The translations under genes and the position numbers were made by a program. A stretch of 64,000 nucleotides of DNA, from the NCBI GenBank assembly GCA_037833965.1, contig AP031355.1, positions 29,723,501 to 29,787,500 on the forward strand. The letters are read 5' to 3'. The stretch is from Marchantia polymorpha subsp. ruderalis. Lineage: Eukaryota > Streptophyta > Marchantiopsida > Marchantiales > Marchantiaceae. A model generated the notes under the pieces. It searched no databases and was not told the DNA's origin. It worked only from the letters and a program-made list of their open reading frames with translations. Below, piece after piece: positions 23,401 through 64,000 of the stretch (positions within the stretch are counted from its first letter, which is position 1; every line of letters begins with the position of its first letter).

Positions 23401-25527
23401 TGTACGCCCAAATGGTCTAATATCCGCCATGGAGCCAACCAGGCAGCAGGCAGCAGGCAGAGTAGTCACATATCCAGAAGGAGGTTGTAGCAGGGAAGAT
23501 TCGGAGCATTAAAGAACGTGGATTCCACCATCTCTGGGGAAATCTGCGGCTACAGTGGGGCAGAACAATGTTGAACAGCATACTTACTGCGCGAATTCGG
23601 GACCGAGAGATGCGAGACAGACACGGAAGCACCTGAACACCGCTCGAAGGTACGAACGAAGCAAGATGCTGGACTCTGGAGGAGGAAGGGGAAGTGGAGG
23701 AGTTTACTGACTAGGGACAAAACCTCCTCTCTGTTCTTCCCGTACGGGGAGGGGGGCCCTTGACCAGCACCATCCGCAATGTCATACAGTACCGTAGAGT
23801 ATAATATATCAGGCCGGAGCAGGCTACACCGGAGCTGGTGGGGAAAGGAAGAAGAACCGATAGGAGCGCAGAAATTCCATCAGGCTCTCGCGGTAAAATC
23901 CACGAGCCTTTGTCTTCACTTCATCTCACTGCGGTGCGGGTCGCCCAAGGAAAGCAAAGCAATGCAAAGCAAAGCGTAGGAAAGCGGAGAGCGGTGTGAA
24001 GTGAGGAGGGGAGAGGACTCGGAGGAGGGAGAGTGGCGGCCCTTTAAGGCCGACTCTGCCATTCCTCCATTCTTTGCTAGCTTTGGTGTAAAGCTGATCA
24101 AGCAGTCAGACAGGCGTCGTAGGGTGTGGCAGAGGAGCAGCAATCTGACCACTTTTGCGTACGTCTACAACCACTGTAGGCCGGGAGGAGGACTTCGAAG
24201 ACCGAAGGAGACTGTGCTGGACTGGATTCGAACGATAGTCGACCGATTCGGTACCGGTAGTTGATGTCTTTCCTGGTCGAGGGAGTGAGTGAGTGAGCGA
24301 GCGGGAGAGTGATTGATTGATTGAGGGATCGATTCCATGAGGCACCGAGTGAGGGGAGAAGGCGGGAGTGAGAGAGGGAGTGAGTGAGTGAGTGCACTCA
24401 ACCGACACTGCAGCAGCGAGCTCGCCTGCCGATAGTACCGAAGTTCAAACTGTAAGTTCGAATTCAAACAACACGGGTCTGAACTCTGGTTTGGTCTGCT
24501 CTGGTCTAGTGGAATCCCACTGTCTTATTATGGTGGACAGCAAGTGTGTGAGTGACGTGTATGTGAGCGGAACATTGGGCGTCGGGAGAAGAAATGGGAC
24601 GACGGCTGCAAAAAGCTCTCAGGAGATCAGGATGCCATGCCAGGTTACGGAGTGTAGTTGATTGCACGAGGGAGGGAGGGATCAGTGCTATTCCTGCCCG
24701 ACTATTTTTTGTTCCTTTTTTCTTTTTTCGTGTTCGGTTCGCAGTCGAAGCTTTCACTCTGACCAGCCTGTCACGCTTTCTTTGTTCAGTTTTAGAGCGG
24801 ACTGGAGGTTGTGGGGGATTCGGTCCTTCAATTGTGGATTGTTTTCGGTAGGCGGCCAGTTAGCATCGTCCCTCGACGGAAAGTGTGGCATCTCTCGAGG
24901 TCCCATTCACTACATGCTGCGGCGTCGGTCTTGCTATTCGTGAATGTTTTGAAGCTTCCTCCGAGGTTTAGTGCTGCACTATCGAGACCTAGTGGAAGGA
25001 AGTTGGAGAGGAGTAGGTGGTCTGGAGGCGGAGCACGGAAGAATTAGTGGCACACACGGAAATCACAGCAGGATTCTCGACTGCCACCCGGGGAGGCCTT
25101 TGTTGCTCTGAGATTGACGGACTGTGCCCGTTCAAGATCTGCTTGGTGGGACGGGAATTCGATCCATCACAAATAGAGCGAGGCGAATTTTTCTGCGCGA
25201 GGAAGACCTAGAGAAGCGGAGCGGGCACGAGGTTGGAGTGGCCGACCATAGAATCTGGGATTCTCACGTGCCCGGAGTGGTACTGGCTTCTCCGGCGTTG
25301 CCAAGGATGGGTGATCACTGGTGGTGCAGTGTACTTCGGTGCACAGAAAATTGGGCTGCACAAGATCAGATGGGGGCCTCTTTCACTCGTCCGAAGGACT
25401 TGTAGGAGGAGAGCGAGCTCTTAGTTAGCTAGATAGCACTCTCACAGGAGTGGTATGGAAACGGTGGCCTGAAGGTTGTGATGCATAATAACCAGTAAGC
25501 TTTGCTTGTTCTTGAGCTCTTGAAACC
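23401..25527 (+). promoter_or_regulatory. GC-richer upstream region and probable long 5' leader of the kinase gene
   Basis: This GC-richer stretch directly precedes the kinase start codon. It carries purine-rich tracts (23990-24030) and GAGT/GTGA repeats (24284-24330, 24366-24395). It also holds several upstream ATGs with short frames, which would act as uORFs if the leader is transcribed. No TATA box was clear enough to call, so the transcription start is unknown and a 5' UTR intron cannot be excluded. Placing it with the kinase gene rests only on proximity and composition. Confidence 0.35.
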
Positions 25528-46877: not shown

Positions 46878-47866
46878 TGTAATAACCCACCGAAGGCTAA
46901 ATCTGCAGTATAGTAGCAAAAAGGTCAAACCCACAAGGACAGAGGCAACACACAAAGTACAAAGTGTCACATTTAATAGACTATTGAAGAGTTTGAATTC
47001 TCAGGCAACTGTCACTCCCAGAAATACTGCAAGTGCTCAACTCTGAGGTCACTCGGAGGACGCATAGTGCAGCGTAGTTCACCCCAACACACACTTGAAA
47101 CTATAGAAACACAACTCAGAGGTCGGTTAGGACCTCTACATAAGATTTCAGGGGGAAAGTTTCTCACGAGTACATTCAGAGGCTCTGCAGGTAGTGACTC
47201 CCAACTCCGGCTTTTACAACCCTTCCACTAGTTTCTGCTAGCGCAGGGCACACGAGTTGGACTTCCTACTTCGGATGCGGTATCTTTGTCAAACCGAAGT
47301 CACTCACACACGGTGAACAACACACTCAACTCACAAAACCCGCAGAGATTACAGGTCCGAACTGAGAAACTCAACTGAGAAAAGATCCAGTGGCACACCA
47401 TAATAGTCCATTGACGAGTTTGAATTCTCAAGCACTAGTCATTCCCAGAAATACTGCAGAGGTTTGCCCGAAGGGCGCCTTCCGCAGCGTAACCTGAATT
47501 ACAACCAAGGCTTACTCGAAGTAACAAAACTTCACTTTGGCATTCAGGGGAAACATCCCGAAGGAGTACAATCGGGAACAATCACCCGAAGGTGTAGGGA
47601 CGAACTGTTCAAGTATCTAACAAGTTACTAGCTCTGAGCATTCAGCAATCACCTGCAGGTGTAGATCCAAACTGCTCAAGTATCTAACCAGTACACTGGC
47701 TCTGACCATTCGGCCGAAGGCCTTCAGCTACAAAATGCGGTATCTTCGTCAAGCTATAGCTCCTCTTGCGCGGTGACAGAACTAAGGACACAAACATGGA
47801 GAGAAAATGAGTTCCTGATCTGCACTTCCGAATCTGGAAGAATTCCAAGGCAAGACGCCTTGAATT

Positions 47867-47874
47867 ACTTTATA
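47867..47874 (-). promoter_or_regulatory. LTR TATA box
   Basis: TATAAAGT on the minus strand, at the same place relative to the LTR end as in the other two LTRs. Sequence downstream would be R-U5. Confidence 0.6.
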
Positions 47875-47913
47875 CCCTCTAAGTCCTAACTAACACTTTA
47901 CGCTTGCACTACA

Positions 47914-50384
47914 CTACACTACGCTGCAGCATCCTGCAGATCCTGTACTGTGACTTCTGCGCGACGGACTGCCGCGCGCTAACTCCCTACCCGACCAGTC
48001 TTCAGCTTGACTGCGCAAGCCCAGCTGCCGCAACACCGCATTCAGCTCCGCCTCAAGGTTTGCCATGGCGTCCCGCGACCTTGATAGGTACGCATCTAGC
48101 TTCTTAGCCACTCGCCGCCGGCTCCGACTGTCACCCGACATCAAACCCACCGCACGAAGCTCTAATTCGCGCAAGGTGAGTTTCTCCTGCGCAGCCACTT
48201 CCCAGAGTGTGTATCCTCTGAGACAGTGGTTGACTCGCTTCACCAACTCTTCCTTCGTGCGATCTGCCTCCCGCCGGCGATCGTCTTCAACCACTACCAA
48301 GTGCAACTCCGCATCCGCACGCTGTGCGCTCAATTCGCCGAACTCCGATTGCAGTTTGCGGATTAACTCTTCATCCACCTGGCGTGCGAGCTGACACTGC
48401 TCTAGCAACCGTGTTTGCCGCACGAGCTCCTCTGACAAAATTTGATTCTGAGTCTGCTCAGAATCCAGCTCATCCGCGAGCTTCGCTTTCTCCTAGGCGA
48501 ACTCCTTCTTCGCCTCCTCAAACTTCTCATCGCGCGTCTGGTCGACGGCCTTTTGCAGCTTCCGCGAAAGAGCAATGTGGCCCCACAGTGCCTTGTTCTT
48601 CAATCGTAGATCCTGGATGTCCCCATCCAAGTGTGCCAACAACTTGCTAGTTCGGACTTTAGTGCGAGTCCGCCTGCGCACTAATTCGACATAGGACCCA
48701 GGTTGGCGGGGGTCTGCGTACTTCGTCACCTTGAGATCGAGATACCTCAGCAGAGGTACCACCTGCTCGCATAGTGCCGCCGTCGGCGTGCCTGCCACCG
48801 ATTGCTCCTCCTCCTCGTCCGAGCCCGATTCTACTTCTCCGTCATCCTCCGAACTGAGGATTTTGGTCGCCATTGAATTCCTTGGCGATTCTCGGGAGTT
48901 GGGCTGCCTAGCGTCTGCTTGTGCTGCTGCTGCCGCCGCACTGCTCCTTGCCAAAATGTCTAATGCGATGGGGGATCCTGTCGCTACCAACGCCGCAGCG
49001 CCGAAGGCACACGTGCCTCTTCCTTCTCCTTGTCGTTTTGCTCCTCTGATGGGTCTTTCGCCGAAGGCGCTTCTGCTGGCTACGCTTCCGCCGAAAGTGG
49101 CTCGCCCGAAGTTCCTTGGGCCGAAGGCGCACCTTCCGGCAGTTCTTCCGCCGAAGGCGCTTGCCCCGAAGGCTCCCTATTCGCAATCTCTTGGGTCGAA
49201 GGCCCTTGAGCCGAAGGCGCATTTTCCGCCGTCTCCAGCGCCGAAGGCGATTCCGCCAAAGGCGAGTCCGCCAACGGTATTCGAGCGGAACACCTATCCG
49301 TCGCCGGCACGTTCGTCGGTGCCGCGTGTCGTCTCTCCTGGCCCGAAGGCCGTTCGACTTCAGCCGAAGGCGTCCGTGCCTTCGGCGTAGGAAGGTCCGC
49401 TGACTCCTCCGCAGTCCGTGTGTTCCCATCCTCCTCCGAGGATGGTGACTCCTTCTCTCCTGCGGCACGCCCCGTCTTCACGCTACTTGCAGGCAACACG
49501 AGCCTGCGTGCTTTCTGCTTCGGCCGACTACAGAGCTCGTGCAGTGGCCGCTTCCGTTTGAGAGCAGCCGAATCGCGATGTTGGCTCTTCTCTGCTTCTC
49601 CCTTCCATCTCCGCTTCCGCGGCACTCGCGCTGCGAGTGATTCTCCTTCAGCTCTTGGTTGGGCTGGTGGCGTGGAGGCAGGAGTCTCTTCCTCGTCGGT
49701 GTCAACCTCGACGTCCTTCACATACCGCCCGGGATTGCTGCGTGACAGCAATGGAAACTGAACTCGCTCGGTCGCGGTTAGGCAACCCATCGACCGATAG
49801 AAATTGATCAAGAAGGGGGAGAGGTGATTGATCGATCCCCCCTTCTCCTCAAACGCATGCTGCCGCGTTATCTTCCATAGGATACGAGCCCAGTGAATTG
49901 GAGCTCCGATCAACGCCAGCTCCACGAATGCCACTTGCCAAGAAGTGATGTAGGTGGTCCTATGCGGCTGCAAGAGTTGGAGAAGTGCTACCGCGACATT
50001 TCTACGGTAGCGATCCTTGTAGTGCCGGATCTTGTACCCGTTCTTGCTAGACTTGCTGCTCTTGAAAAGGGCCGCGAAGGAAATCTCCTCCTCCTTCGTG
50101 ACCTTGATGCTCTCGCTATCGAAGAGGAGATGCCCGTCCTCTCCCGCACATCTTCCCAACACTTGTTCCCAGTCCTCGATGATCCATCGCTCTACGTGCG
50201 GTTGAAACCCGCGCGTAGGTTGGTCTCTCTCCTTCTGCCACTCGCGCACCATGTCATGACACACGTAATTCCACCCCCACAGGAGAAAATCGAGCTTCAC
50301 CGCAGTCAGCTCGTGCTGGAAAGCGCGCAGCCCAATTTGCGGAAGCTTCAGCGGAATCATCGGCAGCTGTGTTGCTTTCGACAT
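47914..50384 (-). pseudogene. Broken copy of the LTR-embedded ORF
   Basis: Three collinear pieces match the intact ORF at 57544-60408. The piece 50384-49080 (434 codons) starts MSKATQLPMIPLKLPQ and contains KLDFLLWGWNYVCHDMVREW, HLLFDSESIKVTK and HLSPFLINFYR. The piece 48990-48493 has an acidic patch and YVELVRRRTRTKV. The piece 48438-47914 has EELVRQTRLLEQCQLARQ, EKLTLRELELRA and SGDSRSRRRVAKKL. The first and second pieces are in different frames, with the shift inside the repeat-rich middle. The second and third share a frame and are separated by a TAG at 48495-48493. It was therefore once a protein of similar layout with a shorter middle. The function of the family is unknown. Confidence 0.8.
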
Positions 50385-51721
50385 CGCGTTCTTGAAATTG
50401 CACTACGCAAACTCTCCTCTGCTATGCCCAAGCTTCGTGCATGCGGATGCGATCCCTCTGCGAGCTCTGCACTCACTCAATTCCCGCGGTCGCGCACTCA
50501 ATTCTCTCTCTGCCTTGCAAGTCGCTACGCGTCGACTTCTCCTCTGATTTCTCTTTGCCAACTTGCGTGCGCCCGCAGCTCTCGCAAGAAATCGAAAATG
50601 CAATTTCAAGAATGAGTCGCCTGCCTTCGGCTCACAAGATTTCATCGTCAACACTTGGAGTGGGAATCGTCCCACTTGATGGCTGCGCTGGCTTGGAGGC
50701 GTAACGGCCCTCCTCTCGCACGCTCGGCTTCACGCTCCGCCGCTACGCGGACTCATACGCTCGAAAATTGAATTCGAATTCTACCATCGTACTTCGCCGT
50801 GGCCTGGTTCGCGCAGCACCGAAGGCGCGGCGACAGAGGCTTTCACCTCTGGCCGACTCGCATCTCTGTTCTATCCCGCACCGCCAAAGGTTTTCCTGCC
50901 AAAGGCGTTGACCTGCAGTGCCGAAGGCGTATCTCTACCGCCGAAGGCGTTGACTCCCAGCGCCGAAGGCGTATCATTGAAGACGTCCGTCAACGTAAGT
51001 GCATCGCCGAAGGCGTTGACCGCAGTCAACTCGTCTTGTCCTTTCTGTCGATCCCTCGTGTCCCCCCGAAGGCGCTTTCTCCACAGGAGTTCCGTTCCGC
51101 CGAAGGGGCACATGTCCGTACCGCCGAAGGCGTTCGGCCGAAGGCGGACCTTACGGAATTGCTTGCCCCAAAAGCATTGACCTAATTGTGATGCGCTGGC
51201 ACCGAAGGTGCTCGTGTGAAGGAGTTCACCCCCGAAGGCATTGACCTAGGGCCGAAGGCGGCTCGTCCGTCGACCTAGCCCTTCCGCCGAAGGAGCTCCC
51301 TCTCAGTATCTTCCGACAATTGTAACTCCTTGATTCCTCATCCGTTTCAAGCGTTCTTGGGCTCGTTAGGACGAGCGCGTTGAGTTCTTTCCAACGAAAC
51401 CCTAATCAAGTCAAGGAGTTATGAGTTGAATAAGTTCTGAGGGATTTCCCTAGCGCAAGGAATCCATAGGATTTCCCCTTCGGCGCAAGGCGGCTTCTCC
51501 GCCTTGCGCCGAAAGGGATTCCCTTCAGAATCGGTTGTTCGGGCCGGGGCGCGTGTCCCGGACATTGCGTCCAACTCCTGGATCTACGAGATTCTAGGAG
51601 ACCCGCGATCATCCATTTTCACTCTATTTAAATGCACCGATTACTATTTACACTACTGCTGCGGTACTGTTTTCCAAAAATGTTTTAAACTCCGCACAAA
51701 AACAAAAAGTGGGTTACCACA

Positions 51722-51734
51722 TGCTCCCCTCCTC
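51722..51734 (-). promoter_or_regulatory. Polypurine tract (plus-strand primer site) of the minus-strand element
   Basis: GAGGAGGGGAGCA on the minus strand immediately precedes the LTR start. This is the expected place and composition for second-strand priming in LTR retrotransposons. It shows that everything from 51721 down is inside the LTR. Confidence 0.8.
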
Positions 51735-52509
51735 AATTGTGAGCGCCCACGCGAACACTCATACGTTGTATTTCCTTAGACGCCACCCATTCACTTGGGT
51801 GCCCAACAACTCTTTTGTCAAGTCTGCGAGTTGGATTGATCCATTTGGGAAGACCTCGATCACCCTGTAGGGTCCCATCCATCTCAAATGCAGCTTGCCC
51901 GGGAATCGAGCATGTCTACTGTCATAGAGCAGGGCCAAATCGCCCTTCTGTAGTAACACCGGTTTGATCTTCTTATCATATATCTCCTTCCTGCGGAGTT
52001 GGATTTGTCTGGTGCGTTCTTCTGCTTCTCGGCGTCTCTCCTCCAGCACCATGACTTCCTGTAGAGCTGACTCTCTTCAGCACCTATCCGCCTCGTATCC
52101 AAGGTTCGTTGGGTGGGTACTTCAAATTCGATTGGCAAGATCGGGTGTTGCCCATACACTAGAAAATATGGTGTTTGTCGGGTGGTGATCTGATCTGCAG
52201 TCCGGTATGCCCAAAATGCGGCTGCCAACTTCGTGTCCCAATCGTGCGCGTGATTCATTGTTACTTTGAGTAGGATTTTGCACAACAATCCATTGAACTT
52301 CTTGTGGTAACCCACTTTTTGTTTTTTGTCGGAATTAAAACAATTTTGAATAGTAAAACCGCGGTAACAGTTGTAAATAGTAATCGGTAAGCAAAACCAG
52401 AGTAAAAAGAGGATCGAAGACAGTCAAGGGGTTTTGAGCTTAGGCCACAGTCGAACGCTTGGGATGGAACGAACGATTCATGCTGCAAGACCCGCTTCGA
52501 GCACCTTCG

Positions 52510-53250
52510 GCGGTAGATCACTCATAACTTTTTCAATTCGTAACGCCTTGGATTTTTCAGGGTCTTGTTGGAAAGAACTTGACGCGTTGGTTCTAACGAG
52601 CCCAAGAACTTGTGAACCGGATGAGAGGTCACTGAGTTATGAGTGTCGGAAGTTACTGATGGGAGGCCTTCGGCGGTAGAGCGACTTCGGCGGTACGCCT
52701 TCGGCGGTAGACGCCTTTGGGGCAAGCGCCTTCGGCGGAAGAACGGCCGGAAGATGTGCCTTCGGCGGTAAACGCCTTCGGAGCAAGGGCCTTCGGCGGA
52801 AGAGTGCCTTCGACGGAAGAGTGAATCCCTCATAACTTTCTCAATTCATAACGCCTTGACTTGGTTAGGGTCTCGTTGGAAAGAGCTCCACACGCTCGTT
52901 CTAACGAGCTCAAGAACTATTGGAATGAATAAGGGATCAATGAGTTATCAGTGTCGGAAGTTACTGATAGGGAGGGCCTTCGGGTCAACGCCTTCGGCGA
53001 TGCGAAAGAGTGCCTTTGGCGGAAGATTGGATTCCTCATAACTTTCTCAATTCATAACGCCTTGACTTGGTTAGGGTCTCGTTGGAAAGAGCTCAACACG
53101 TTTGTTCTAACGAGGCCAAGAACACTTGGAACGAATAATAGATCAATGAGTTATGAGTGTCGGAAGTTACTAATAAGGAGTCTTCGGGGCAAGCGCCTTC
53201 GGCGGAAAAACTGCCGGAAGATGCGCCTTCGGCTCAAGGGCCTTCGGCGG
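52510..53250 (+). repeat. Three copies of a ~150-bp LTR module separated by CCTTCGGCG arrays
   Basis: A module containing CATAACTTTCTCAATTCATAA, or close variants, together with GTTGGAAAGA, TCTAACGAG and GTGTCGGAAGTTACT occurs at about 52510-52665, 52828-52975 and 53033-53180. Each copy is followed by a cluster of CCTTCGGCGG-type units. Single copies occur at about 51310-51430 (reverse), 56330-56430 and 33465-33590. Confidence 0.8.
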
Positions 53251-53781
53251 TAGACGCCTCCGGCGCCACGTGGCAGAAGATTCCGGATGGCAAAAATTGG
53301 CGGGATTATGTCAAGTGTGGGAAGTAGAACAGCGGGGCGTGAAGTCGCGCATGGGAAGCAGAACGGCGGGGCGTGAAGTCGCACGTGAGGAGCAGGCCGT
53401 TACCCATTATCGCGGGAACGGCATTCAAGCGGCATGTCGGTCCTCCGGACCTCGGATTTTGGAGAAAGAATTTTGGCTTGGGTTCAGAGATCTTGCGGGG
53501 CCCATATCTTTGCGATGAACGGTCGGATGGATCTGAAATTTGGTGGGGCTGTTGGTCTCAGCGGACCACACATGCCTGCAAATTTTCAGCCTCAAATCTT
53601 GGATGTAAAGCGGTTAAAGACGCTGGCGGCTCTATACAGTAGGCTTAGGATTCAGATTAAGGGTTAGGGTAAGATTTAGGTTGTAAGTTAGAGGTGAAGG
53701 CAGCCGCCAACTCCTCAGGTGTGGGATCTGTTACGGCTCGCACCATAGCAGGTAGTGTAGTGTTAGTTAGGACTTAGAGGG

Positions 53782-53788
53782 TATAAAG
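53782..53788 (+). promoter_or_regulatory. LTR TATA box in the solo LTR
   Basis: TATAAAG in the context TAGAGGGTATAAAGTAGTT, collinear with the TATA boxes of the two long LTRs. Confidence 0.6.
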
Positions 53789-54538
53789 TAGTTCAAGGCG
53801 TCTTGCCTTGGGATTCTTCCAGTTTGGAAGTGTAGATCAGGAATTCATTTTCTCTGCGTGTTTGTGTCCTTAGTTCTGTCACCGCGCAAGAGGAGCTACA
53901 TCTTGGCGATCCGCATTTTGTAGCTGAAGGCCTTCGGCTGAATGTTCAGAGCTAGTGTACTGGTTAGAGACTTGAGTAGTTCGGATCTACACCTGCTGGT
54001 GATTGCCGATGCTTAGAGCTAGTTACTAGTTAGATACTTGAACAATTTCCCCCTTACACTTTCGAGTGATTGTTCCTGATTGTACTCCTTCGGGATTTTT
54101 CCTCCTGAATGCCAAAGTGAAGTTTTGTTACTTCAAGCAAGCCTTGGTTGTAATTCAGGTTACGTTCCAGCAGGTGCCTTCAGGGCAACCCCTGTAGTAT
54201 TTCTGGGAATAACAAGTGCCTAAGAATTCAAACTCTTCAATAGACTGTCATGGTGTGCTACTGGATCGTTTCTCAGTGGAGTCTCTCAGTTCAGACCTGT
54301 GTTCTCTGCGCGTTTTGTGAGTTGAGTGTGTTGTTCACCGCGTGTGAGTGACTTCGATCCGAAGTAGGAAGTCCACTCCGGGTTCCCTATGCTAGCAGAA
54401 ACTAGTGGAAGGGTTGTAAAAGCCGGAGTTAGGAGTCACTACCCGCAGATTCGCTGAGTGTGTTCGCAAGAGACTTCCTCCCTGAAATCTTAAGTAGAGG
54501 TCCTAACCGACCTCTGAGTTGTGTTTCTATAGTTTCAG

Positions 54539-54564
54539 GTGTGTGTGTGTGTGTGTGTGTGTGT
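54539..54564 (+). repeat. (GT)13 microsatellite in LTR U5
   Basis: The equivalent position in the LTR at 56047-61415 has (GT)9 at 61200-61217, so the tract length differs between copies. Confidence 0.95.
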
Positions 54565-56539
54565 TGAGTGAACTACGCTCCACTGTGCGACCTCCGAGTG
54601 ATCTCCGAGTGAACACTTGCAGTATTTCTGGGAGTGAAAGTCGCCTGAGAATTCAAACACTTCAATAGTCTGTTAAATGTGACACTTTGTACTCTGTGTG
54701 TTGCCTCTGTCCTTGTGGGTTCGACTTTTCTACCACTATATTGTAGTTTTAGCCTTTGGTGGGTTATTACACTTCTTAGTCAGCCCATTCGCCTTGGGGT
54801 TGTACGGTGTAGTCTTCCGATGCCTAATCTGAAAATGCTGCGTCAGATCTTCAATCACCTTGTTCAGAAAATGGGTACCCCTATCATTGACCAGCTCCAG
54901 CGGACATCCGTAATGGGTGATAATAGATTTGAACAGAAATGTCGCCACTGTCGCTGCATCGTCTCTTCGAGTAGCTTCGGCCTCCACCATTTTGGTTGCA
55001 TAGTCCGTCGCTACCAGAATGTAGCGTCCTCGTGTGTTCCTGGTGACTGGCTGTATTGGTCCTACAAAATTGGTTCCCCATTTTTTGAAAGGTGCCAAGG
55101 GCATGATGGGAGTCAGGGGCCATCGCGTTGTAGGCGTTGGTCTCCCTGTCCTTTGGCAACTGTCGCACCTCCGTATGTATTCGAGGATATCCTTGAACAT
55201 TGTTGGCCACCAGTACCCTGCGTTTACAATCTTGGTCACCGTATTTCTTGTGGCATAGTGGCCACCGGCATCTTCTGTATGCATCGCACTTACTACCCGT
55301 GGAACCTCTGATTCCTCCAAGCATCTACACAGTCTCTCGTCTGCCATCTTCCTGAACAACACTCCCTGTTGGAGTTGGTAAGGACCAGCCTTATGTATGA
55401 AGATAGTCCGTTGCTCAACAAACAGCCCCTCTGGGCATTGGAGTGTTAGCAAGTACCTGTACAACTCTGCATACCTCGACTCATTGCTGGCGAACAACTG
55501 AAAAAGTTGTTCATCAGGGAAATCATCGACCAGTTCCTCTTCCGTTGGTTGGATCCATAATCTGGAGAGGTAGTTTGCATTTTCATGGTGAACACCCTTC
55601 CTTGTCTGCACAGTATATGTGAATTCCTGTAACAGCAGTACCCACCTGGCTATGCGTCCGGACAGATTTGCCTTCTTCACTAAATGCTGCAAGGCGTAGT
55701 GGTCCACATGGAACACGAACTCGTAGCAGATCAAGTAGTGCCTGAATTTCTTGCAAGAATACATCATTCCCAACGCCTCTCTCTCAGTCGTGGTATACTT
55801 CCTCTCTGCTAGCGACAACTGACGGCTCGCAAAATAAATTGGGTAGTCCATTTTGTTGTCGTCCTTTTGACTGAGAACCACACCGATAGCGAATGCCGAC
55901 GTGTCGACGTAGACACGGAAAGGTCGGTCCCAGTCCGGGCTCCTTAGTACCGAGGCGGTCGTAAGCTTGGATTTGAGAGCCTCGAACGCCAACGGTTGCT
56001 TCTCACCCCACTCGGAGGGTTCGTCCTTCTTTAGTAACTTGGTCAGTGTGGTACCCCACTTTTGGCAATTTTGAGGAAATTAAAACATTTTTGGAAAACT
56101 GTACCCTGGCAGCATTGTAAATAGCCTTCGGTACATCAAAACAGAGTGAATCCGGAAGATCGCGGGGATTCTCGAGGGATCTTGTAGAATCTGGGATTTG
56201 GGGTGCAGTAGTAAGGACAGGCACCTCCCTCCCTGCGAGCTCCGCAGTTAGGATCTCTACGGCGCAAGGCGCAAAACCCGCCTTCGGAGGTTGCGTCCGC
56301 GGCTGTAGGGAAACCCCCGTAATTAGATAACCCTTGGGCGCCTTGACTAAGTTAGGGTCCCGTTGGAAAGAGCTCGACGCGCTGATTCCAACGAGCCCAA
56401 GAACGCTTGGAACGGACGAGGACTTAGAGAGTTATTGCTACTGGAAGAAACGGAGGCGGTCGCCTACGGCGGAAGGAGTTCGCCACCGGCGCGAATTCCG
56501 CCTACGCGGAAGGCGGAATCAAGTTTTGTCCTATGCGCG

Positions 56540-57010
56540 GACGAAGGCGTTCGCCTGTGCACAGGCGAAGTAGGGTTAGGGAAGGCGCGAAGTCCGCCTA
56601 CGCACAGGCGTTCGCCTGCGCACAGGCACTTCGGCGTCGGCGGAAAATCCGCCTTGGGCCCTAGAAATGCGCCTTGTGAGGTAGAAAGTGTACGGCGCCT
56701 TCCGCGCCAGCGCAGCGCCGCGTACGTCGGAAGAGCCGCCAGAATAATCCAATAGGTACGGACCGTGCGGACGGCACGGGTGGATGCGCTCTTGGACGGA
56801 CGGAGTTGCGGCGGCGGAAGCGCCGACGGAGAGACAAGGAACGGACAGACTGGACGGAGACGGCTGACCACGGTCAACGCCTTCCGCGCCATCGCAGCGC
56901 CGCGGACGGCATTCGCCTGCGCACAGGCGAACGCCTGTGCACAGGAGGATGTTCAAGTTCCGCACCGGCGGAGGATCCGCCGAGGCCCCTGCCTGCGCAC
57001 AGGCAGGAGT
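56540..57010 (+). repeat. Palindromic GCCTGYGCACAGGC repeats in U3
   Basis: GCCTGTGCACAGGC (a 14-bp perfect palindrome) and its variant with CGCAC occur near 56550, 56605, 56925, 56935 and 56990. The same motif recurs inside the ORF near 58715, 58732 and 58770. It was not noticed in the other LTRs of the window. Confidence 0.8.
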
Positions 57011-57543
57011 TGAATTTTTGTCCGACATGCGGACACACGCGTCAAGGCAGAAGGAGATTGGCCGAGGGGCGGTACGAACAAGTGTACCGCGCAAGGCGGA
57101 AAACTCGCCTTCGGCGCTACGCCCCCATGTCCGGAGGGTGACACGCTCGCGGAGTTCAAATCCGCCAATTCGAGCGTGAGAGTTTAATCGACGACGGCGG
57201 AGCGTGAAGCCGCGCGTGAGAGCGAAGACCGTTCCAGCGTACAGCCGGCGCGGCCATCAAGTGAGACGTTCTTCACGACCAAGAGCCGACCATGACCTTC
57301 GACCGGGCGGCGGAGAACGTCCCATTCTTGAACTCGCGATTCCAATCTCTTGTGCGCGCTGCGCGCATCCATCTGCTGGCTGCGGACCATTCTCGACGTC
57401 GTCACACAGGAGATGTCTTGTTGATTGAGGGAGAAGTGAGTGCGCGTGATTTGGAATTGAGAGCGATTAGAGTTTGCCGAGAGAGAAAGAAACGCGGGCA
57501 GTGCGGAAGTAGAATGAGCGGGCGAGCGAACCCCAGGAACGCA

Positions 57544-60408
57544 ATGACGAGACCGAGCAGATTGCGTATGGTGCCACTTCGCCTGCCGCAGAACGGGCTG
57601 CGCGCTTTCGAAGAGCGCTTAATAGCAAGAAAGCTCGATTTCTTGCTATGGGGATGGAATTACATCTGCGCGAATATGGTGCGCGAGTGGCTAGAGCCAC
57701 AGGGACCACCCTCGCGCGGATTGCGTCCGCATGTTGATCGGTGGACAGTCCAAGATTGGGCGCAGGCGTTGGGAAGATGTGCTGGCATGCCAGGGCATCT
57801 CCTTTTCGACAGTGAGAGCATCAAGGTGACCAAGCAAGAAGAGGCACAATTTGTGGAGCTGTTCAAGACCGGGAGGTCTACCAAGAATGGGTACAGGACC
57901 CGTGATTACAAAGATCGATTTCGCCGGACTTTGTCCGCGGCGCTGATGCAATTACTGCAGCCGCACCGCGCCTGCTACATCACATTGTGGCAGGTCTCTT
58001 TTGTGGAGTGCGTCATCGAGGGAACTCCCATTCACTGGGCGAGCATCCTGCACAGGGTGATGCGACAGCACGCGTTTGAGGAGAAGGGGGGAACTCTAAA
58101 CCATCTTTCTCCTTTCCTCATCAATTTTTATCGACAGCGGAATTGTTTGACAGCGGCGGAGCTTGAACATTTTCCGCCATTGTCCATCGACCATCCCGGG
58201 AAGTATGTGCGGGAGAACGAGGTCGACACTGATGCGGAGGAGTCACCGACTTCTACCCCATCAAGACGGAGGGACGAAGGGAGACACACCCCTGCGGCGC
58301 GAGTGCCGCGGAAGCGGCGATGGAGAGAAGAGTCTGAAGAGGAGCAGCATCAAGAACCCTCTGCTCCCATTCGACCGCGGCCGCTGTGCGAGCCATACAG
58401 CCGGCCGAAGCAGAAGGCACGCAGACTGGTGTTGCCAGCTGACAGTGCAGACACGGCGACGATTGCGACGGAGATAGGAAGTGCGTCGCCAGAGAGGCGA
58501 GAGGAAGCGCGGACGACCGCAGGAGCAGCGGGCCACGCTGCAACCTCGTCGGGAGAGAGGCCGCCTACGGGCCAAGGGCCTCCGGAGTTACCACGTGCGA
58601 TGCGGACAGAGGTTCCGTTCGCGCACAGGCAAACCTCCGCGGACGGACGAGCCTCCGCGGATCGGCGAACACAAGTGGACGTGGATCTACGCTTACGCGT
58701 GGGAAGGAGCAGTTCGCCTGTGCACAGGTCACCTGTGCACAGAACACCTCCGCACGTGCCGCCTGTGCACAGGCAAGAATCACCCCCGTTCCAACGTAGG
58801 AAGGGGAAGGAGCCGGCGGAAGAACCGCCTACGAGACACCGGCCCTCGGGGCCAGACCCTCCGGCGCACCACGCGCCGCAATTTGCGCCTTCGGCGCCAG
58901 GGCCTTCGAGACGAGGAGATACGAGTAGAGAGCGTGCGGAGGCCGCACCATCGGCGGGAAGTCCGCCGATAGATGCGCCTTCGGCGGTAGGGCCTATAGG
59001 CCAAGGAACATCGGGCGTGCGGCCCCCGGCCATGTCGCCTTCGGCGATAGATGTCCGCGGCGCTACGCCTGCGGCGGACAAGGCGCCGGCAAATGCGCCT
59101 GCGCACGGGCCGGGCACAGCCCCCACGGACCGATCAAGGGAGCAGCAGACGGAGGAGCGGAGTGACTGTCCGCGGGATGAATCGATGCGCGATGCGCAAT
59201 CCAACCCCGCGCAGCCACCTTCCGCTCAATCGCCTTCAGCGACGGACGACAGAGACAGAGAGAATGCGGTAGGCAATCAACCAGCGAGCGACGGGGATGC
59301 CGCTCGGATACAATCGCCTTCCGCCTTAGACATTTTGGCGACGAGCAGCGAGGCTGCAGCCGTGCCTTCGCAGGCAGCACACGTCGAGGACGTGCAGCCC
59401 CACTCGGGGCAGTCGCCGACGCAATCAATGGCGACTGAAATTCTCCACTCGGATGATGACGACGGGGGCTCCACGGAAGAAATGTCAGGAGCAGAAGACA
59501 CCGAGGAGGAGGAGGAGGAAATTGTTGGAGCGCCGGCGGCGGCGCTCTCTGAGCAGGTGATTCCGTTGCTGCGGTACTTGGATCGCAAGGTCGATAAATA
59601 CGCCGACCCACTCCAGCCGGGATCTTACATCGAGTTAGTGCGCAGGAGGACTCGCACTAAAGTCCACACCAGCAAGCTATTAGCTAGAGTGGACCAGGAG
59701 TTGAGGGACTTGAAGGAGAAGCATGAGTGCTTGTGGGGACAGTACAAGCTTAATCAGAAGTTCTACAAGCACTCCGAGAAGATGAAGGATGAGAAACTGG
59801 GCGAGCTCACCAAGGAGCAGGTGAAGGTCAAGGAAGCACTCAACTCTGAGCAGGCCCAGAATCGGATTTTGTCAGAGGAGCTCGTGCGACAGACGCGGTT
59901 GTTGGAACAATGTCAGCTCGCACGGCAGGCGGATGAAGAATTAATCCGCAGTTTGCAGTCAGAGTGTGGCGAATTGAGAGCGCAACATGCTGAAGCCGAA
60001 TCGCAATTAGTGACGATTGAAGAGGATCGCAGGAAGGAGGCGGATCGCACGAAGGTGGAGACGGCGAGGCGAGTCGCCCACTGTCTCAAGGGCTACGCCC
60101 ACTGGGAAGTGAAGGCGCAGGAGAAACTCACACTGCGTGAGTTTGAATTGCGCGCAGCCGGGTTGTTGTCAGGCGACAGTAGGAGTCGGCGGAAGGTAGC
60201 GAAGAAGCTCGAGGCCTTTCTGTCGAAGGCACAGGATACCATGTCCGCCCTCGAGGGGGAGGTGTCCGCGGCGTTGCAGCGGTTGGGACTGCGCAGTCGA
60301 GCGGAAGAGTGGCAGGGTAGAGAGTTAGCGCGCGGCAGTCGGCCGCGCAGGAGACGTAGTACAGGTTCCGCGGAGTGTAGTGTAGCGTGGTTCCGTGCAG
60401 GCGTGTAG
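57544..60408 (+). CDS. LTR-embedded ORF: N-terminal domain of unknown function, Pro/Ser-rich middle, C-terminal coiled coil
   Basis: Not recognised as a named family. The open frame extends upstream to an ATG at 57292. I chose 57544 (MTRPSRLRMVPLRLPQ) because similarity to the second copy (MSKATQLPMIPLKLPQ at 50384) starts there, giving 954 residues. Residues 1-210 are a conserved domain with KLDFLLWGWNYICANMVREW, HLLFDSESIKVTK, GTPIHWASIL and HLSPFLINFYR. It recalls, weakly, the mobile-domain-like proteins carried by some plant gypsy elements. About 210-625 is low-complexity Pro/Ser/Ala/Arg, largely encoded by CCTTCGGCG and GCACAGGC repeats. Residues 628-665 are acidic, and about 710-850 are charged heptad-like coiled coil. 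The tail has SGDSRSRRKVAKKL and LGLRSRAEEWQGRELARGS. There are no zinc, RT, integrase or membrane motifs. It lies within U3, after the polypurine tract position and before the TATA box. The role is unknown; structural, RNA-binding or regulatory roles are all possible. Confidence 0.8.
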   Translation: MTRPSRLRMVPLRLPQNGLRAFEERLIARKLDFLLWGWNYICANMVREWLEPQGPPSRGLRPHVDRWTVQDWAQALGRCAGMPGHLLFDSESIKVTKQEEAQFVELFKTGRSTKNGYRTRDYKDRFRRTLSAALMQLLQPHRACYITLWQVSFVECVIEGTPIHWASILHRVMRQHAFEEKGGTLNHLSPFLINFYRQRNCLTAAELEHFPPLSIDHPGKYVRENEVDTDAEESPTSTPSRRRDEGRHTPAARVPRKRRWREESEEEQHQEPSAPIRPRPLCEPYSRPKQKARRLVLPADSADTATIATEIGSASPERREEARTTAGAAGHAATSSGERPPTGQGPPELPRAMRTEVPFAHRQTSADGRASADRRTQVDVDLRLRVGRSSSPVHRSPVHRTPPHVPPVHRQESPPFQRRKGKEPAEEPPTRHRPSGPDPPAHHAPQFAPSAPGPSRRGDTSRERAEAAPSAGSPPIDAPSAVGPIGQGTSGVRPPAMSPSAIDVRGATPAADKAPANAPAHGPGTAPTDRSREQQTEERSDCPRDESMRDAQSNPAQPPSAQSPSATDDRDRENAVGNQPASDGDAARIQSPSALDILATSSEAAAVPSQAAHVEDVQPHSGQSPTQSMATEILHSDDDDGGSTEEMSGAEDTEEEEEEIVGAPAAALSEQVIPLLRYLDRKVDKYADPLQPGSYIELVRRRTRTKVHTSKLLARVDQELRDLKEKHECLWGQYKLNQKFYKHSEKMKDEKLGELTKEQVKVKEALNSEQAQNRILSEELVRQTRLLEQCQLARQADEELIRSLQSECGELRAQHAEAESQLVTIEEDRRKEADRTKVETARRVAHCLKGYAHWEVKAQEKLTLREFELRAAGLLSGDSRSRRKVAKKLEAFLSKAQDTMSALEGEVSAALQRLGLRSRAEEWQGRELARGSRPRRRRSTGSAECSVAWFRAGV

Positions 60409-60444
60409 CGTAGTGCAGTGTAGTGCTAGGTAGTACTTAGAAGG

Positions 60445-60452
60445 TATAAAAT
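60445..60452 (+). promoter_or_regulatory. LTR TATA box; probable start of R about 30 bases downstream
   Basis: TATAAAAT, collinear with TATA boxes in the solo LTR and the minus-strand LTR. It lies 37 bases after the stop of the embedded ORF, so the ORF is in U3 and the genomic RNA should start near 60475-60480. The position of the transcription start is inferred. Confidence 0.6.
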
Positions 60453-60599
60453 AGTTCCAGGCGTTTTGCCTGGGGTTCTTTCCCATCAGAAGTGCAGATC
60501 AGGAACCCATTTCCTTTGCGTGTTTGTGTCCTTGAGTTCTGTCACCACGCACGAGGAGTTACAACTTAGCGTTCCGCATTTTGTAGCTGAAGGCCTTCG

Positions 60600-61325
60600 G
60601 CCGAATGTTCAGAGCTAGTACATTGGTTAGAGACTTGAGTAGTTCGGATCTGCACCTGCGGGTGACTGCCGATGCTCAAAGCCAGTGACTAGTTAGATAC
60701 TTGAACAGTTTCGCCCCTACACCTTCGAGTGTTTCTTTCTGATTGTACTCCTTGGGATTTTTCCCCTGAATGCCAAAGTGAAGTTTTGCTACTTCGTGTA
60801 AGCCTTGGTTGTAAATTCAGGTTACGCTGCAGCAGGTGCCTTGAGGGTAACCCCTGTAGTATTTCTGGGAATGACAAGTGCCTGAGAATTAAAACTCTTC
60901 AATAGACTGTTGTTGTGTTACTGGAATGTTTCACAGTGAGTCCTTCAGTGCGGACCTGTGTTCTCTGCGCGTTTTGTGAGTTGAGAGTGTTGTTCACCGC
61001 GTAGGAGTGACTTCGATCCGAAGTAGGCAGTCCAAACCGGGTTTCCTACACTAGCAGCAAGCTAGTGGAAGTGTTGTAAAAGCCGGAGTTGGAAGTCACT
61101 GCCCGCAGCTTTGCCGAGTGTGCTCGCGAGAGACTTTCCCCCTGAAATCTTGAAGTAGAGGTCCTAACGGATCTCTGGGTTGTATTTCTGTAGTTTCAGG
61201 TGTGTGTGTGTGTGTGTTACGCTGCACTGTGCGACCTCCGAGTGCGCTCCGAGTGGACACTTGCAGTATTTCTGGGAGTGACAGTTGCCTGAGAATTCAA
61301 ACTCCTCAATAGTCTGTTAAAACGT
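60600..61325 (+). repeat. Internal duplications in R-U5
   Basis: Two duplications are visible. A unit of about 67 bp containing TTAGAGACTTGAGTAGTT (near 60602) is repeated in diverged form from about 60670. A unit of about 60 bp with GTATTTCTGGGARTGACA occurs near 60860 and again near 61265. The second pair also appears in the solo LTR (near 54195 and 54620) and in the minus LTR (near 46975 and 47410, reverse). It is therefore an old and maintained feature of the family. Confidence 0.8.
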
Positions 61326-61437
61326 GACACTTTGTACCCTGTGTGTTCCTCTGTCCCTGTGGGTTCGACCTTTCTACCACTATATTGCAGTTTTAGCCTT
61401 TAGTGGGTTATTACATAAGAAGCCGACAACTTCTTTT

Positions 61438-61456
61438 TGGCGCCGCTGCCGGGGAC
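61438..61456 (+). promoter_or_regulatory. Primer binding site, tRNA-Asp type
   Basis: TGGCGCCGCTGCCGGGGAC matches the complement of the 3' end of plant tRNA-Asp (known as TGGCGCCGTTGCCGGGGA in Athila/Tat-type gypsy elements) with one difference. It begins 22 bases after the LTR end, a longer gap than usual. Confidence 0.8.
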
Positions 61457-61501: not shown

Positions 61502-64000
61502 ATGTCGACTGGGGCTGGCGGGAGCAACCTAAGTGCTAGAGCTGTCCGCAAGTTCCGACGAGATTCAGAGAAGGCCGTGGAAGAGACACGGCGTCAAAAC
61601 AAGAAAACACCAAAAAGAGTACCTAAGCCTAGTTCGGCCGGCATCCTTGGGGAACCTACCCCCGACGACTCGGGACCAAACTTGGTGCTTACAGTTCTAC
61701 TAGATATTCCCTGCACGGACCCGCCTAGTGAAGTAGAACCGACCGCCCGAGAACCGTCGACAGGCACACCGATGGCGGACGGACAAGCCAATGTGCGGCT
61801 ACCTCAGCCGATTACTAAACATTCCTACCCGAAGTACAAAGGGAGTGGGGATGACGACGATGCAGATTCATACATCAAGTTGTTCGAATCGGTGTCTATT
61901 GCCAATCGCGAGATCGCAGACGACGACCGACTAAGGATCTTTCCGAGCCTTCTGCGGAAGAAAGCGAGGAGTTGGTATAATCACGAGAGCATCGATCCGA
62001 CTGGGTTGACAACATGGGCCCAGCTGAAGGAGAAGTTCCTTCGCCGCTTTCGCGAGCTCGGCTACGACAGCCGGGTTTTGACGAAGTTACGTAATTTGCA
62101 GCGAGAGAAGAAGGAGAGTCTGCGTGACTACACTGAGAGATTTCTGGACCTCCTCGACAGAATACCGAAAACAGGACCAGGGTCCCCTTTCTCGGTACAA
62201 CAAGCTGTGGATTGGTACGTGACCGGTTTAACTCGGGAGATGGAGACTTTTTGCCGACGCAGCAAGTGCGACACTATTGAGGATGTGATTGCATCGGCAG
62301 AAGCCTTCGAAACTTCCACACTCAACCGAAGAGGGAGAGAGAGACGGGAGTCGAAGGAGCGCAAACCGAAGGGAGGGCGAAGACGGCGTAGAGGTACAAC
62401 TCCGTCATCGGAGGAATCGTCTTCGGACGAGAACCGTTCTTCATCCGAAGAAGAGGAAACCTCATCGTCGGAGGAGGAGAAGAAGAGGAAGAAGCATGGG
62501 TCAGCAAAGAAAAAGGGCATCCGACGAGTGACTACGGACAGAGCGCCGGGAGATATAGCTTCGAAGATGGAGACCCTTGTGAAGGACTTCGCCGATCTCA
62601 AAGTTCAAGTGGTAGGCGGGCATGATCGCAGAAAATCACCCGGGAGAGTGCGAGCGAACTTATGGTGTACTACGTGCGGTGCGGTGGGACATGCAAACAC
62701 CGAGTGCCTTACCACCCGGCCGTCATACCCAGTCAACGCAGTAGAGTGGGCGCAACCGTACTATGGAGAGCACCCTCAGTACTATGGAGAGGCTAGCGAA
62801 GAGACAGCCTACGCCGTCCAGTCGGTTCCTACCCCTCCTGCAGTTTCAGCAATGCAAGTCCCACGATATAATCCGGTGGATCGGGCCACTACGGTACCTG
62901 TGAGGCGGAGAGCACCTCCAGGGACGTTTGACCCACCGCCACCGCGAGCTTGTTATAATTGCGGGGAAGTTGGGCACTTCTCACCGCAGTGTCCCCATCC
63001 AAAAAGGCGAAACGATTATGCTCCGACATGTAGTAATTGCAAGAAGGTCGGGCACACTGCGCCAGAGTGTGATCAGCCACCAGTCCCTCGGCCAGTGGTA
63101 CGATTTGTGAACACTCCTGCCAAGGAGGACGTGCAAGTTAACCAGGTCGAAGTAGGTTCAGACGGGGATGGCGAAGACGAAGAATGGCCGGCTGAAGAGG
63201 TCATGTGCGCACGGGTCGAAACTCGTAGTTCCAAGAAATCGAAGGAGCAAGAGCGCGACACTCGCAAGCACGAACGGAGAACCGCCGACCAGACGGGAAA
63301 AGGAAAGGAGAAGACATCCAGCAAGTCCGACTTGCGACCTGCTCGGAAGTCTTCGGCTACGCGAGAAACACCAGCAGTGCGCCCCCAGACGGCAGTCGAG
63401 GACGAGCCAGTGCGCCTACTGAAACGGGACTATGCTGCGGATATCCGCAACGAGGTAGCCAACCTGTTGAAGGAAGCGATCCGCACGCAAAAGGACCCAC
63501 CGCGGCCAGACTTGACATCCTCCCTTGGGGCGAAGTTGGCAGCCACCGTGGAACCTCGCAGAGCGTCGCCGACCCCGGCGCCCCAACGCGCCCACTATGA
63601 CTTGGTTGAAGATCTCGGGAGTCGAAAAGTGAACATTACGTTCAAGCAGCTCTTGGAGGACAATAAGACGTATCGGAGAATGTTGATGCTTTCGCTACGG
63701 CATCCGCGGAAGCCGCGCGCATCCACATCCTCTCAAGTATATCAAGTGGAGAGCGAAGACCAAGGACCACCCGAGATAGATGTGGAAATAGCAGGGTGTT
63801 GTGTACGCAGAGTGCCAATCGACTCTGGATCAGGAGTCAACATAATGACGGAGGATACAGCGAGAGCCTTGGGGTTCAGTCAATACGAACCCTCGAAGCG
63901 TGTGTTGAGATTAGCGGATCAGACGCGGAGAATGCCTGCAGGTATGCTGCGCAATGTCAAGACAACCATCGGAGGTGCGGACTTTCGGTTGACGTATATC
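61502..64000 (+). CDS. gag-protease of a Ty3/gypsy retrotransposon, continues past the right edge
   Basis: The frame is open from ATG 61502 to the window end (833 codons, no stop). Gag forms the particle and binds genomic RNA; the protease matures the polyprotein. The retrotransposon gag domain spans residues about 109-270 (ARSWYNHESIDPTGLTTWAQ, KFLRRFRELGY, LRDYTERFLDLL). Residues about 295-335 are Ser/Glu and Lys/Arg-rich. Three CCHC zinc knuckles (C-x2-C-x4-H-x4-C) start at residues 389 (CTTCGAVGH), 484 (CYNCGEVGH) and 510 (CSNCKKVGH). The retropepsin active site is at residue 774 (VPIDSGSGVNIM). The intact frame, primer site and LTR suggest a young copy that may be autonomous, though pol is not visible. 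It sits 86 bases after the LTR end. An earlier ATG at 61491 opens only a short frame. Confidence 0.92.
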   Translation, partial: MSTGAGGSNLSARAVRKFRRDSEKAVEETRRQNKKTPKRVPKPSSAGILGEPTPDDSGPNLVLTVLLDIPCTDPPSEVEPTAREPSTGTPMADGQANVRLPQPITKHSYPKYKGSGDDDDADSYIKLFESVSIANREIADDDRLRIFPSLLRKKARSWYNHESIDPTGLTTWAQLKEKFLRRFRELGYDSRVLTKLRNLQREKKESLRDYTERFLDLLDRIPKTGPGSPFSVQQAVDWYVTGLTREMETFCRRSKCDTIEDVIASAEAFETSTLNRRGRERRESKERKPKGGRRRRRGTTPSSEESSSDENRSSSEEEETSSSEEEKKRKKHGSAKKKGIRRVTTDRAPGDIASKMETLVKDFADLKVQVVGGHDRRKSPGRVRANLWCTTCGAVGHANTECLTTRPSYPVNAVEWAQPYYGEHPQYYGEASEETAYAVQSVPTPPAVSAMQVPRYNPVDRATTVPVRRRAPPGTFDPPPPRACYNCGEVGHFSPQCPHPKRRNDYAPTCSNCKKVGHTAPECDQPPVPRPVVRFVNTPAKEDVQVNQVEVGSDGDGEDEEWPAEEVMCARVETRSSKKSKEQERDTRKHERRTADQTGKGKEKTSSKSDLRPARKSSATRETPAVRPQTAVEDEPVRLLKRDYAADIRNEVANLLKEAIRTQKDPPRPDLTSSLGAKLAATVEPRRASPTPAPQRAHYDLVEDLGSRKVNITFKQLLEDNKTYRRMLMLSLRHPRKPRASTSSQVYQVESEDQGPPEIDVEIAGCCVRRVPIDSGSGVNIMTEDTARALGFSQYEPSKRVLRLADQTRRMPAGMLRNVKTTIGGADFRLTYI

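What the first reader, a model, noticed from the sequence alone, without database searches (positions are those of the whole stretch)
56047..61415. Gypsy LTR carries a ~950-codon ORF entirely inside U3
The + strand LTR (56047-61415) contains an intact frame, and the minus-strand LTR (46878-51721) contains a broken homologue at the same relative place. The polypurine tract at 51722-51734 lies upstream of the ORF, and a collinear TATA box lies just after the ORF in both copies. The ORF is thus in U3, at the 3' end of the genomic RNA, and would be duplicated into both LTRs at each cycle. Most LTRs carry no protein; a U3-encoded protein is known for the mouse mammary tumour virus superantigen. I know of no plant gypsy element with a large U3 gene of this layout, which makes it the best candidate here for an undescribed system.
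Basis: partly seen in the sequence, partly recalled or inferred. Interest (0 to 1): 0.85.

Follow-up and report, generated by a model that had tools for sequence, protein, structure and literature searches.

The report
Retrotransposon gene hidden inside its LTR
A common, recently active jumping gene in a liverwort-like plant carries a 1,038-residue protein gene entirely inside its terminal repeats, selection has kept that gene as a protein, and so stray single repeats left in the genome may still be working genes.

Summary
The + LTR (56047-61415) is the 5' LTR of a complete Ty3/gypsy element; its 3' LTR lies 19 kb downstream (99.925% identical), with the same target-site duplication GTCAG. The ORF (57292-60408, 1,038 codons, not ~950) lies wholly in U3, before the TATA box, in both LTRs. 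Two more complete elements have the same layout, one with both gene copies broken. Of 26 LTR loci read, 21 were full length; 15 of 21 have the frame open. Pooled pN/pS over 13 elements is 0.18, and 0.015-0.02 over codons 101-300; 30 of 32 indels in the ORF are multiples of three, against 14 of 78 outside. So a protein is under strong purifying selection. It has no credible match in Pfam, NCBIfam or PDB sequences and no membrane segment. It has an indel-free N-domain, basic clusters, a disordered middle and a C-terminal coil. U3 carries family-specific palindromes upstream. Best reading: a U3-encoded nuclear factor acting on the element's own LTR or RNA (mechanism inferred). MMTV sag is a known U3 gene; searches gave no plant case.

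The parts
56042..56046 (.). target-site duplication GTCAG (second copy follows the 3' LTR, L010 from 6545)
56047..61415 (+). 5' LTR, 5369 bp, with the U3 gene
   Evidence: 99.925% identical to the 3' LTR at L010:1174-6544
56553..57004 (+). repeated palindrome GCCTGYGCACAGGC in U3 upstream of the ORF, candidate binding sites (inferred)
   Evidence: 16 matches in the window (one mismatch allowed, both strands) against 0.03 expected; 3-4 exact copies upstream of the ORF and 0-2 inside it in 21 of 21 LTRs
57194..57261 (+). block just upstream of the ORF, shared with the old and the ORF-less LTR
   Evidence: 72% over 68 columns with the ORF-less LTR
57292..60408 (+). U3 ORF, 1038 codons plus TAG
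57535..58233 (+). conserved N-domain, residues 82-314, 233 aa with no indel in the 9 aligned members
   Evidence: pN/pS 0.015-0.02 over codons 101-300; model pLDDT 48, all helical
58300..58437 (+). two basic, NLS-like clusters (RVPRKRRW from residue 337, PKQKARRLVLP from 372)
   Evidence: also seen in old-family copies; NLS role inferred
58492..59361 (+). Pro/Ser/Ala-rich, presumably disordered middle, partly built from the same short repeats as non-coding U3
   Evidence: weakest constraint here (pN/pS 0.55 in codons 601-700)
59362..59541 (+). acidic stretch, residues 691-750
   Evidence: 28% D+E, no K or R
59545..60339 (+). C-terminal long helix, probable coiled coil, residues 752-1016
   Evidence: mean pLDDT 82.5, helix 25-208 of the model; 67% identity to an old-family copy
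60445..60450 (+). TATA box, 36 bp between it and the ORF stop
   Evidence: present at the matching place in all three LTR types of the window
61438..61455 (+). primer binding site-like sequence (tRNA-Asp by recall)
61502..64000 (+). start of the gag-protease frame; continues beyond the window to a TAG-CAATTA stop
46878..51721 (-). 3' LTR of an older relative, with a decayed copy of the gene (about 47929-50612)
   Evidence: PPT at 51722-51734
52303..54771 (+). related solo LTR without the gene (TSD CTTCT); has 324 nt of other sequence where the gene-bearing LTR has nt 1216-4370

Best explanation
A Ty3/gypsy family keeps an accessory gene inside U3. SHOWN by sequence: the gene is downstream of pol and of the PPT, upstream of the TATA box, in both LTRs, in solo LTRs, and under purifying selection as a protein. 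INFERRED: it is translated from a U3-started or a spliced 3' transcript; the product enters the nucleus through its basic clusters, dimerises through its C-terminal coil, and its conserved N-domain acts in trans on the element's own U3 (the palindromic repeats upstream of the gene are the candidate sites), raising transcription or lifting silencing. In short, a VANC-like self-activator in an MMTV-sag-like place. I hold the shown part at about 0.95 and the inferred mechanism at 0.45.
For: Layout, PPT, PBS and TSDs in 3 of 3 complete elements. 15 of 21 full-length LTRs open; 111 of 150 and 117 of 150 best matches sit in frames of at least 1000 aa (counted). pN/pS 0.177 pooled over 13 open elements, 0.015-0.02 over codons 101-300, against 1.58, 2.06, 1.68 and 2.29 in four of the five other frames. 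The same elements' gag-PR gives 0.13-0.33 and pol 0.04-0.09. Indels in the ORF: 30 of 32 multiples of 3, 14 of 78 outside (17 copies against the window LTR, shared indels counted more than once). N-domain without indels across families at 61-67% identity. Long helix predicted with pLDDT 82.5. Palindromes: 16 matches against 0.03 expected, 4-6 exact copies in each of 21 LTRs. The old and ORF-less LTRs have none exact and are richer in another motif, CCTTCGGCG (10 and 9 copies against 4 in the window LTR), as VANC targets are reported to vary between related TEs (PMC5735166, abstract read). No membrane segment (highest 19-residue hydropathy 1.14).
Against: No expression data could be consulted. 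The promoter for the ORF is unknown: no TATAAA upstream of it in U3 and six upstream ATGs. DNA binding, dimerisation and nuclear entry are untested. The N-domain model is poor (pLDDT 48) and finds no fold. The motif arrays may only be U3 repeat drift: some lie inside the ORF itself, and the ORF-less LTR has an array too. Six of 21 LTRs are broken, including both LTRs of one of three complete elements; these six were left out of pN/pS. One antisense phase gives pN/pS 0.21, because its third positions fall on the sense ones; it holds 13-15 stops in the 3 copies examined. Constraint is uneven: 0.36 in codons 1-100 and 0.55 in 601-700. All copies come from one genome.
Confidence: 0.45

Rival explanations
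1. Rev/Rem/CERV-like RNA factor: the U3 protein binds the unspliced genomic RNA in the nucleus and drives its export or packaging. The gene lies at the 3' end because it is read from a spliced subgenomic RNA.
For: Position downstream of pol; basic clusters and long helix; an LTR-element precedent exists, Cer1 CERV, a protein from a spliced mRNA needed for genomic RNA export (PMC10309623, abstract read).
Against: No splice sites shown; no RNA element tested; the upstream palindromes point to DNA at least as well.
Confidence: 0.25
2. Structural or integration role: the helical N-domain and coil form a particle or pre-integration scaffold, a second Gag-like protein or an integrase-guiding factor.
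For: All-helical N-domain prediction, weak, long helix, pN/pS in the range of gag-pol.
Against: No match to Retrotrans_gag or Ty3_capsid, which do match the element's own gag.
Confidence: 0.15
3. Env-like protein in the usual place downstream of pol, taken into the LTR when the PPT moved upstream of it.
For: Position relative to pol.
Against: No hydrophobic segment (highest 19-residue mean 1.14); long helix with basic clusters; no Pfam Env match.
Confidence: 0.03
4. Captured host gene or an insertion without function for the element; the open frame is kept only because copies are young.
For: Copies are young (LTR pairs 99.85-99.93%); a sister LTR family exists without it.
Against: pN/pS 0.18 overall and 0.015-0.02 over codons 101-300 between elements, indels in threes; an old, diverged family has the same gene in the same place.
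Confidence: 0.03
5. On origin, not exclusive of the above: the N-domain is a very diverged member of a plant TE domain family (Transposase_32, Transposase_28 or plant mobile domain) that other plant gypsy elements carry in internal extra ORFs, here moved into U3.
For: My own reading of motif spacing against Transposase_32 (recalled, no call). [quoted passage not shown]
Against: No Pfam match for the 9 N-domain members except one stray hit at E 0.18 to another family; six-frame genome searches give Transposase_32 none (whose controls rang nowhere either), PMD one at E 0.45 elsewhere, Transposase_28 two at E 0.9-1 elsewhere.
Confidence: 0.3

Closest known systems
Mouse mammary tumour virus sag (U3 ORF with its own U3 promoter P2)
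   Same: [quoted passage not shown] duplicated in both LTRs by the retroviral cycle (general knowledge).
   Different: Vertebrate retrovirus and immune superantigen; here a plant Ty3/gypsy element, more than 1,000 aa, no membrane segment, no own promoter shown.
Antisense accessory ORFs of Grande, RIRE2 and Retand (gene23, TRP28)
   Same: Extra conserved gene 3' of pol in plant gypsy elements, proposed nuclear or regulatory role (PMC7264820, parts 1-2 of 3 read; PMC11963269, abstract and passages).
   Different: Those are antisense and inside the internal region, and Retand is reported only from eudicots and Liliopsida; here sense, inside the LTR, no TRP28 match.
Retrosat2 / RIRE3 ORF0
   Same: Long LTRs (over 3.2 kb in Retrosat2) and an extra ORF in a plant gypsy family (PMC3485330, passages).
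   Different: ORF0 lies upstream of the gag-pol ORF; it is not described as part of the LTR in the passages seen.
VANC anti-silencing proteins of Arabidopsis TEs
   Same: TE-encoded protein plus repeated target motifs that differ between related families (PMC5735166, abstract).
   Different: VANDAL DNA transposons (recalled); demethylation shown there, only inferred here; no direct sequence comparison made.
Cer1 CERV of C. elegans
   Same: LTR element with a regulatory protein from outside gag-pol (PMC10309623, abstract).
   Different: From a spliced mRNA; its place relative to the LTR was not read; sequences not compared.

Membership tests
Ty3/gypsy LTR retrotransposon | gag, protease, RT, RNase H, integrase in that order | tested here: met
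   Retrotrans_gag, zf-CCHC, aspartyl protease (E 0.0024, below its cut-off), RVT_1, RT_RNaseH, H2C2, rve
Ty3/gypsy LTR retrotransposon | two LTRs, PBS, PPT, 5-bp TSD | tested here: met
   3 of 3 complete elements
chromovirus | chromodomain at the integrase C-terminus | tested here: not met
   none found by Pfam in the pol pieces of one element (L012)
U3-encoded accessory gene (MMTV sag type of layout) | whole coding frame between LTR start and TATA/R, in both LTRs | tested here: met
U3-encoded accessory gene (MMTV sag type of layout) | expressed, from a U3 promoter or a spliced RNA | not testable with these tools
   no RNA data; no TATAAA upstream of the ORF, six upstream ATGs
MMTV superantigen family | sequence similarity to Sag | tested here: not met
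   Pfam-A scans, no such match
Retand-type TRP28 accessory ORF | Transposase_28 domain, antisense, internal region | tested here: not met
Env-like extra ORF | transmembrane segment | tested here: not met
   highest 19-residue hydropathy 1.14
VANC-like anti-silencing factor | protein binds repeated motifs of its own element and removes methylation | not testable with these tools
   only the repeats are seen
Plant mobile domain / Transposase_32 | profile match | tested here: inconclusive
   no match, but the Transposase_32 genome search rang in no control either

The most novel reading that the evidence does not exclude
The LTR itself is the gene unit: U3 holds a self-activating or anti-silencing factor together with its operator repeats, so each solo LTR with an open frame is a free-standing regulatory gene that can act in trans on family members, and ORF-less sister LTRs may be its parasites. 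It would be the first U3-encoded regulatory system of a plant element that I know of (searches listed none).
Probability: 0.3. Interest if true: 0.88.

Novelty: new variant of a known kind. Interest (0 to 1): 0.72.

Why it matters
LTRs are generally treated as regulatory, mostly non-coding DNA. Here the LTR encodes a large conserved protein of unknown family, in at least 150 listed copies of a young family, including solo LTRs with the frame open. Loss of the internal region by LTR recombination would then not remove the gene, which would change how solo LTRs should be counted and annotated (some could be predicted as host genes). If the protein regulates the element through U3, gene and operator form one unit copied twice per cycle. 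The question of why plant gypsy elements carry extra ORFs becomes testable in a tractable plant group.

Tried and rejected
Chance ORF: rejected (349 aa longest in 300 simulations; pN/pS). ORF outside the LTR: rejected by 3 of 3 complete elements. Antisense gene: one antisense phase also gives a low ratio (0.21) but holds 13-15 stops in the 3 copies examined. Env: disfavoured. Profile libraries: Pfam gives only a weak match of the coil to a phage protein, E 0.012, below its cut-off; NCBIfam and PHROGs (two domains only) nothing below E 0.7; PDB sequences none; viral contigs no relative; Rfam none in the window at gathering scores. Fold search with the weak N-domain model gave nothing with E below 0.97 and is not interpreted; the coil model was not searched. 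Whether ORF-less LTRs belong to complete elements: 0 of 20 sampled stretches show a PBS; 17 of 20 show an LTR end followed by other sequence, 3 could not be placed; this says they are mostly solo or 3' LTRs, not that no complete element exists. Other plant genomes could not be searched, so spread beyond this species is unknown. The RT lineage was not placed (no reference set at hand).

Of the 26, five (L019, L024, L027, L028, L032) were truncated or rearranged and left out of the 21. For pN/pS, L010 and L014 (second LTRs of the same elements) and the six broken copies were left out, leaving 13. The 40 hits were listed for full identity to a 301-bp query at LTR nt 954-1254, so LTR nt 1001-1200 shows no variation by that selection. 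For the N-domain alignment A1, of the young copies only two and of the seven loci six were used; L042 was left out because my pattern missed it, L037 because its stretch holds stops.
Full report
What is there. The window is C6:29723501-29787500 of a 241-Mb genome in nine contigs. The + LTR at 56047-61415 is followed by a PBS-like sequence at 61438-61455 and a gag frame from 61502. Its partner LTR lies at C6:29798574-29803944 (L010:1174-6544), preceded by the purine tract GAGGAGGGGGGCA and followed by GTCAG, the same five bases that precede the 5' LTR. The two LTRs agree at 5365 of 5369 aligned bases. The start-to-start distance is 19.0 kb; another gypsy element (gag to integrase in one 1590-aa frame at L009:3560-8332, scanned in three pieces) lies in the internal region. 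Two elements on C7 without such an insert have LTRs 11.1-11.2 kb apart, TSDs CTTGG and AAGCT, and pair identities of 99.89% and 99.85%.

The gene. The ORF runs from ATG 57292 to TAG 60406-60408. It starts 1,245 nt into the LTR and ends 36 nt before the TATA box at 60445, the only TATAAA on the + strand of the LTR. It is therefore in U3, beyond pol and beyond the PPT. In the L012 piece the pol frame stops 37 nt before the 3' LTR. In 300 simulated LTRs with the same nearest-neighbour composition the longest frame was 349 aa.

Selection. I read 26 LTR loci (window included); 21 were full length and 15 of these have the frame open (1047-1062 aa); the five others were truncated or rearranged. Solo LTRs with matching flanking duplications and open frames are among them (L016, L021, L033, L034). 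Genome-wide, the best 150 matches to the N-part and the best 150 to the C-part lie in frames of at least 1000 aa in 111 of 150 and 117 of 150 cases (counted); these lists are capped and overlap, and the first-look candidates (8051 and 7440) are not copy numbers. Pooled pN/pS over 13 open elements is 0.177; by blocks of 100 codons it runs from 0.015 and 0.02 (codons 101-300) to 0.36 (1-100) and 0.55 (601-700). Read in the five other frames the same alignment gives 1.58, 2.06, 1.68, 2.29 and 0.21; the last is the antisense phase whose third positions coincide with those of the gene, and it holds 13-15 stops in the 3 copies examined. For comparison, gag-protease gives 0.13-0.33 and RT-integrase 0.04-0.09 in pairwise comparisons of three elements. 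In 17 copies compared with the window LTR, indels in the ORF are multiples of three in 30 of 32 cases, outside it in 14 of 78; shared indels are counted more than once.

Older relatives. The minus-strand LTR 46878-51721 carries the same gene at the same place, with stops and a frame break, 45% and 60% identical over the N- and C-parts, pN/pS 0.53 and 0.39 at pS about 0.6; a third, overlapping low-complexity match gives 0.76. A search with its N-part scored 96 places (of 9786 candidates), 88 of them with at least one stop in the match. The N-domain (residues 82-314) has 233 residues in all 9 aligned members of both families, with no indel, at 61-67% identity between families. A third, ORF-less LTR (52303-54771, solo, TSD CTTCT) shares the outer 104 nt, some U3 repeats, the block just before the ORF and R-U5; where the gene-bearing LTR has nt 1216-4370, that is the ORF almost exactly, it has 324 nt of other sequence. 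At 20 sampled copies of that family no PBS followed.

Protein. No credible match in Pfam, NCBIfam, PHROGs or PDB sequences and no relative in viral contigs. Composition and models give a helical N-domain (pLDDT 48, so fold not known), basic clusters at 337 and 372, a Pro/Ser/Ala-rich middle, an acidic stretch 691-750 without K or R, and a C-terminal helix of some 180 residues (pLDDT 82.5), most likely a coiled coil. The highest 19-residue hydropathy is 1.14, so no membrane segment. The middle shares short repeats with non-coding U3 of the related LTRs and of its own, so it probably grew from U3 repeats that were read in frame.

U3 repeats. The palindrome GCCTGYGCACAGGC (one mismatch allowed) is found 16 times in the window, both strands counted, all in this LTR, against 0.03 expected. 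All 21 LTRs have 4-6 exact copies, 3-4 upstream of the ORF and 0-2 inside it. The old and ORF-less LTRs lack exact copies and are richer in another motif, CCTTCGGCG (10 and 9, against 4 in the window LTR). A probably dimeric protein and dyad repeats beside its gene suggest self-regulation; TE-encoded VANC proteins have repeat targets that vary between related elements (PMC5735166, abstract). This is inference.

How it may be expressed. A transcript begun at the TATA box of a given LTR does not contain that LTR's own copy; the copy in the 3' LTR is at the 3' end of the genomic RNA. It could be read from a promoter in U3, as P2 does for MMTV sag (PMC9412291, passages), or by splicing from the genomic RNA. 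There are six ATGs upstream in U3, and the ORF's own ATG has an A at -3. Nothing here decides between these routes.

Known or new. Reviews and surveys describe extra ORFs in plant gypsy elements inside the internal region (PMC7264820, parts 1-2 of 3; PMC6317226, passages; PMC11963269, abstract and passages; PMC3485330, passages). I found no report of an LTR-internal gene in a plant element in searches, which are phrase searches of open-licence papers seen as listings, nor in searches on liverwort elements; passages on transposons in two liverwort genome papers (PMC9985172; PMC12885004) mention none. The layout is known from MMTV, so I call it a new variant of a known kind. The protein family itself has no relative that I could find in the libraries searched.

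Host. A LEAFY domain match makes it a streptophyte by general knowledge. Contig lengths of 24-33 Mb for C2-C9 leave about 5.6 Mb for C1. Eight large chromosomes and one small one fit a Marchantia-like liverwort; this is inference.

Noticed in passing
L009:431-433, L011:9746-9748, L013:9797-9799 (about 2.9 kb after the 5' LTR end): gag-protease and RT-integrase lie in one frame separated by a single TAG followed by CAATTA, identical in 3 of 3 elements. This is the tobacco-mosaic-virus type of leaky stop (motif recalled), so Gag-Pol is probably made by stop-codon readthrough.
   Followed up: partly
window 52303-54771: Sister LTR family without the U3 gene: 41 matches listed, one of them the window itself (the other full ones 86-94% identical). 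The gene is missing almost exactly, so gene presence is modular. Possible non-autonomous parasites of the gene-bearing family.
   Followed up: partly
G000:C4:14582800-14617086: Four copies at a regular 11,190-bp step in one orientation, which look like an LTR-internal-LTR tandem chain from unequal recombination.
   Followed up: no
window 58716-59110 and LTR nt 2500-3065: The disordered middle of the protein shares short GC-rich repeats with non-coding U3, as if U3 repeat expansion had been read in frame.
   Followed up: partly
L017, L023, probably L029: LTRs that sit inside other LTRs of the same family.
   Followed up: no
G000:C1 (about 5.6 Mb by subtraction): The small contig, perhaps a sex chromosome, holds many decayed copies of the old family, including three identical-scoring matches at 2438597, 2844966 and 3187479.
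   Followed up: no
window 25516-26295: 259-aa frame with a protein-kinase match (E 1.8e-8), perhaps an exon of a host gene.
   Followed up: no
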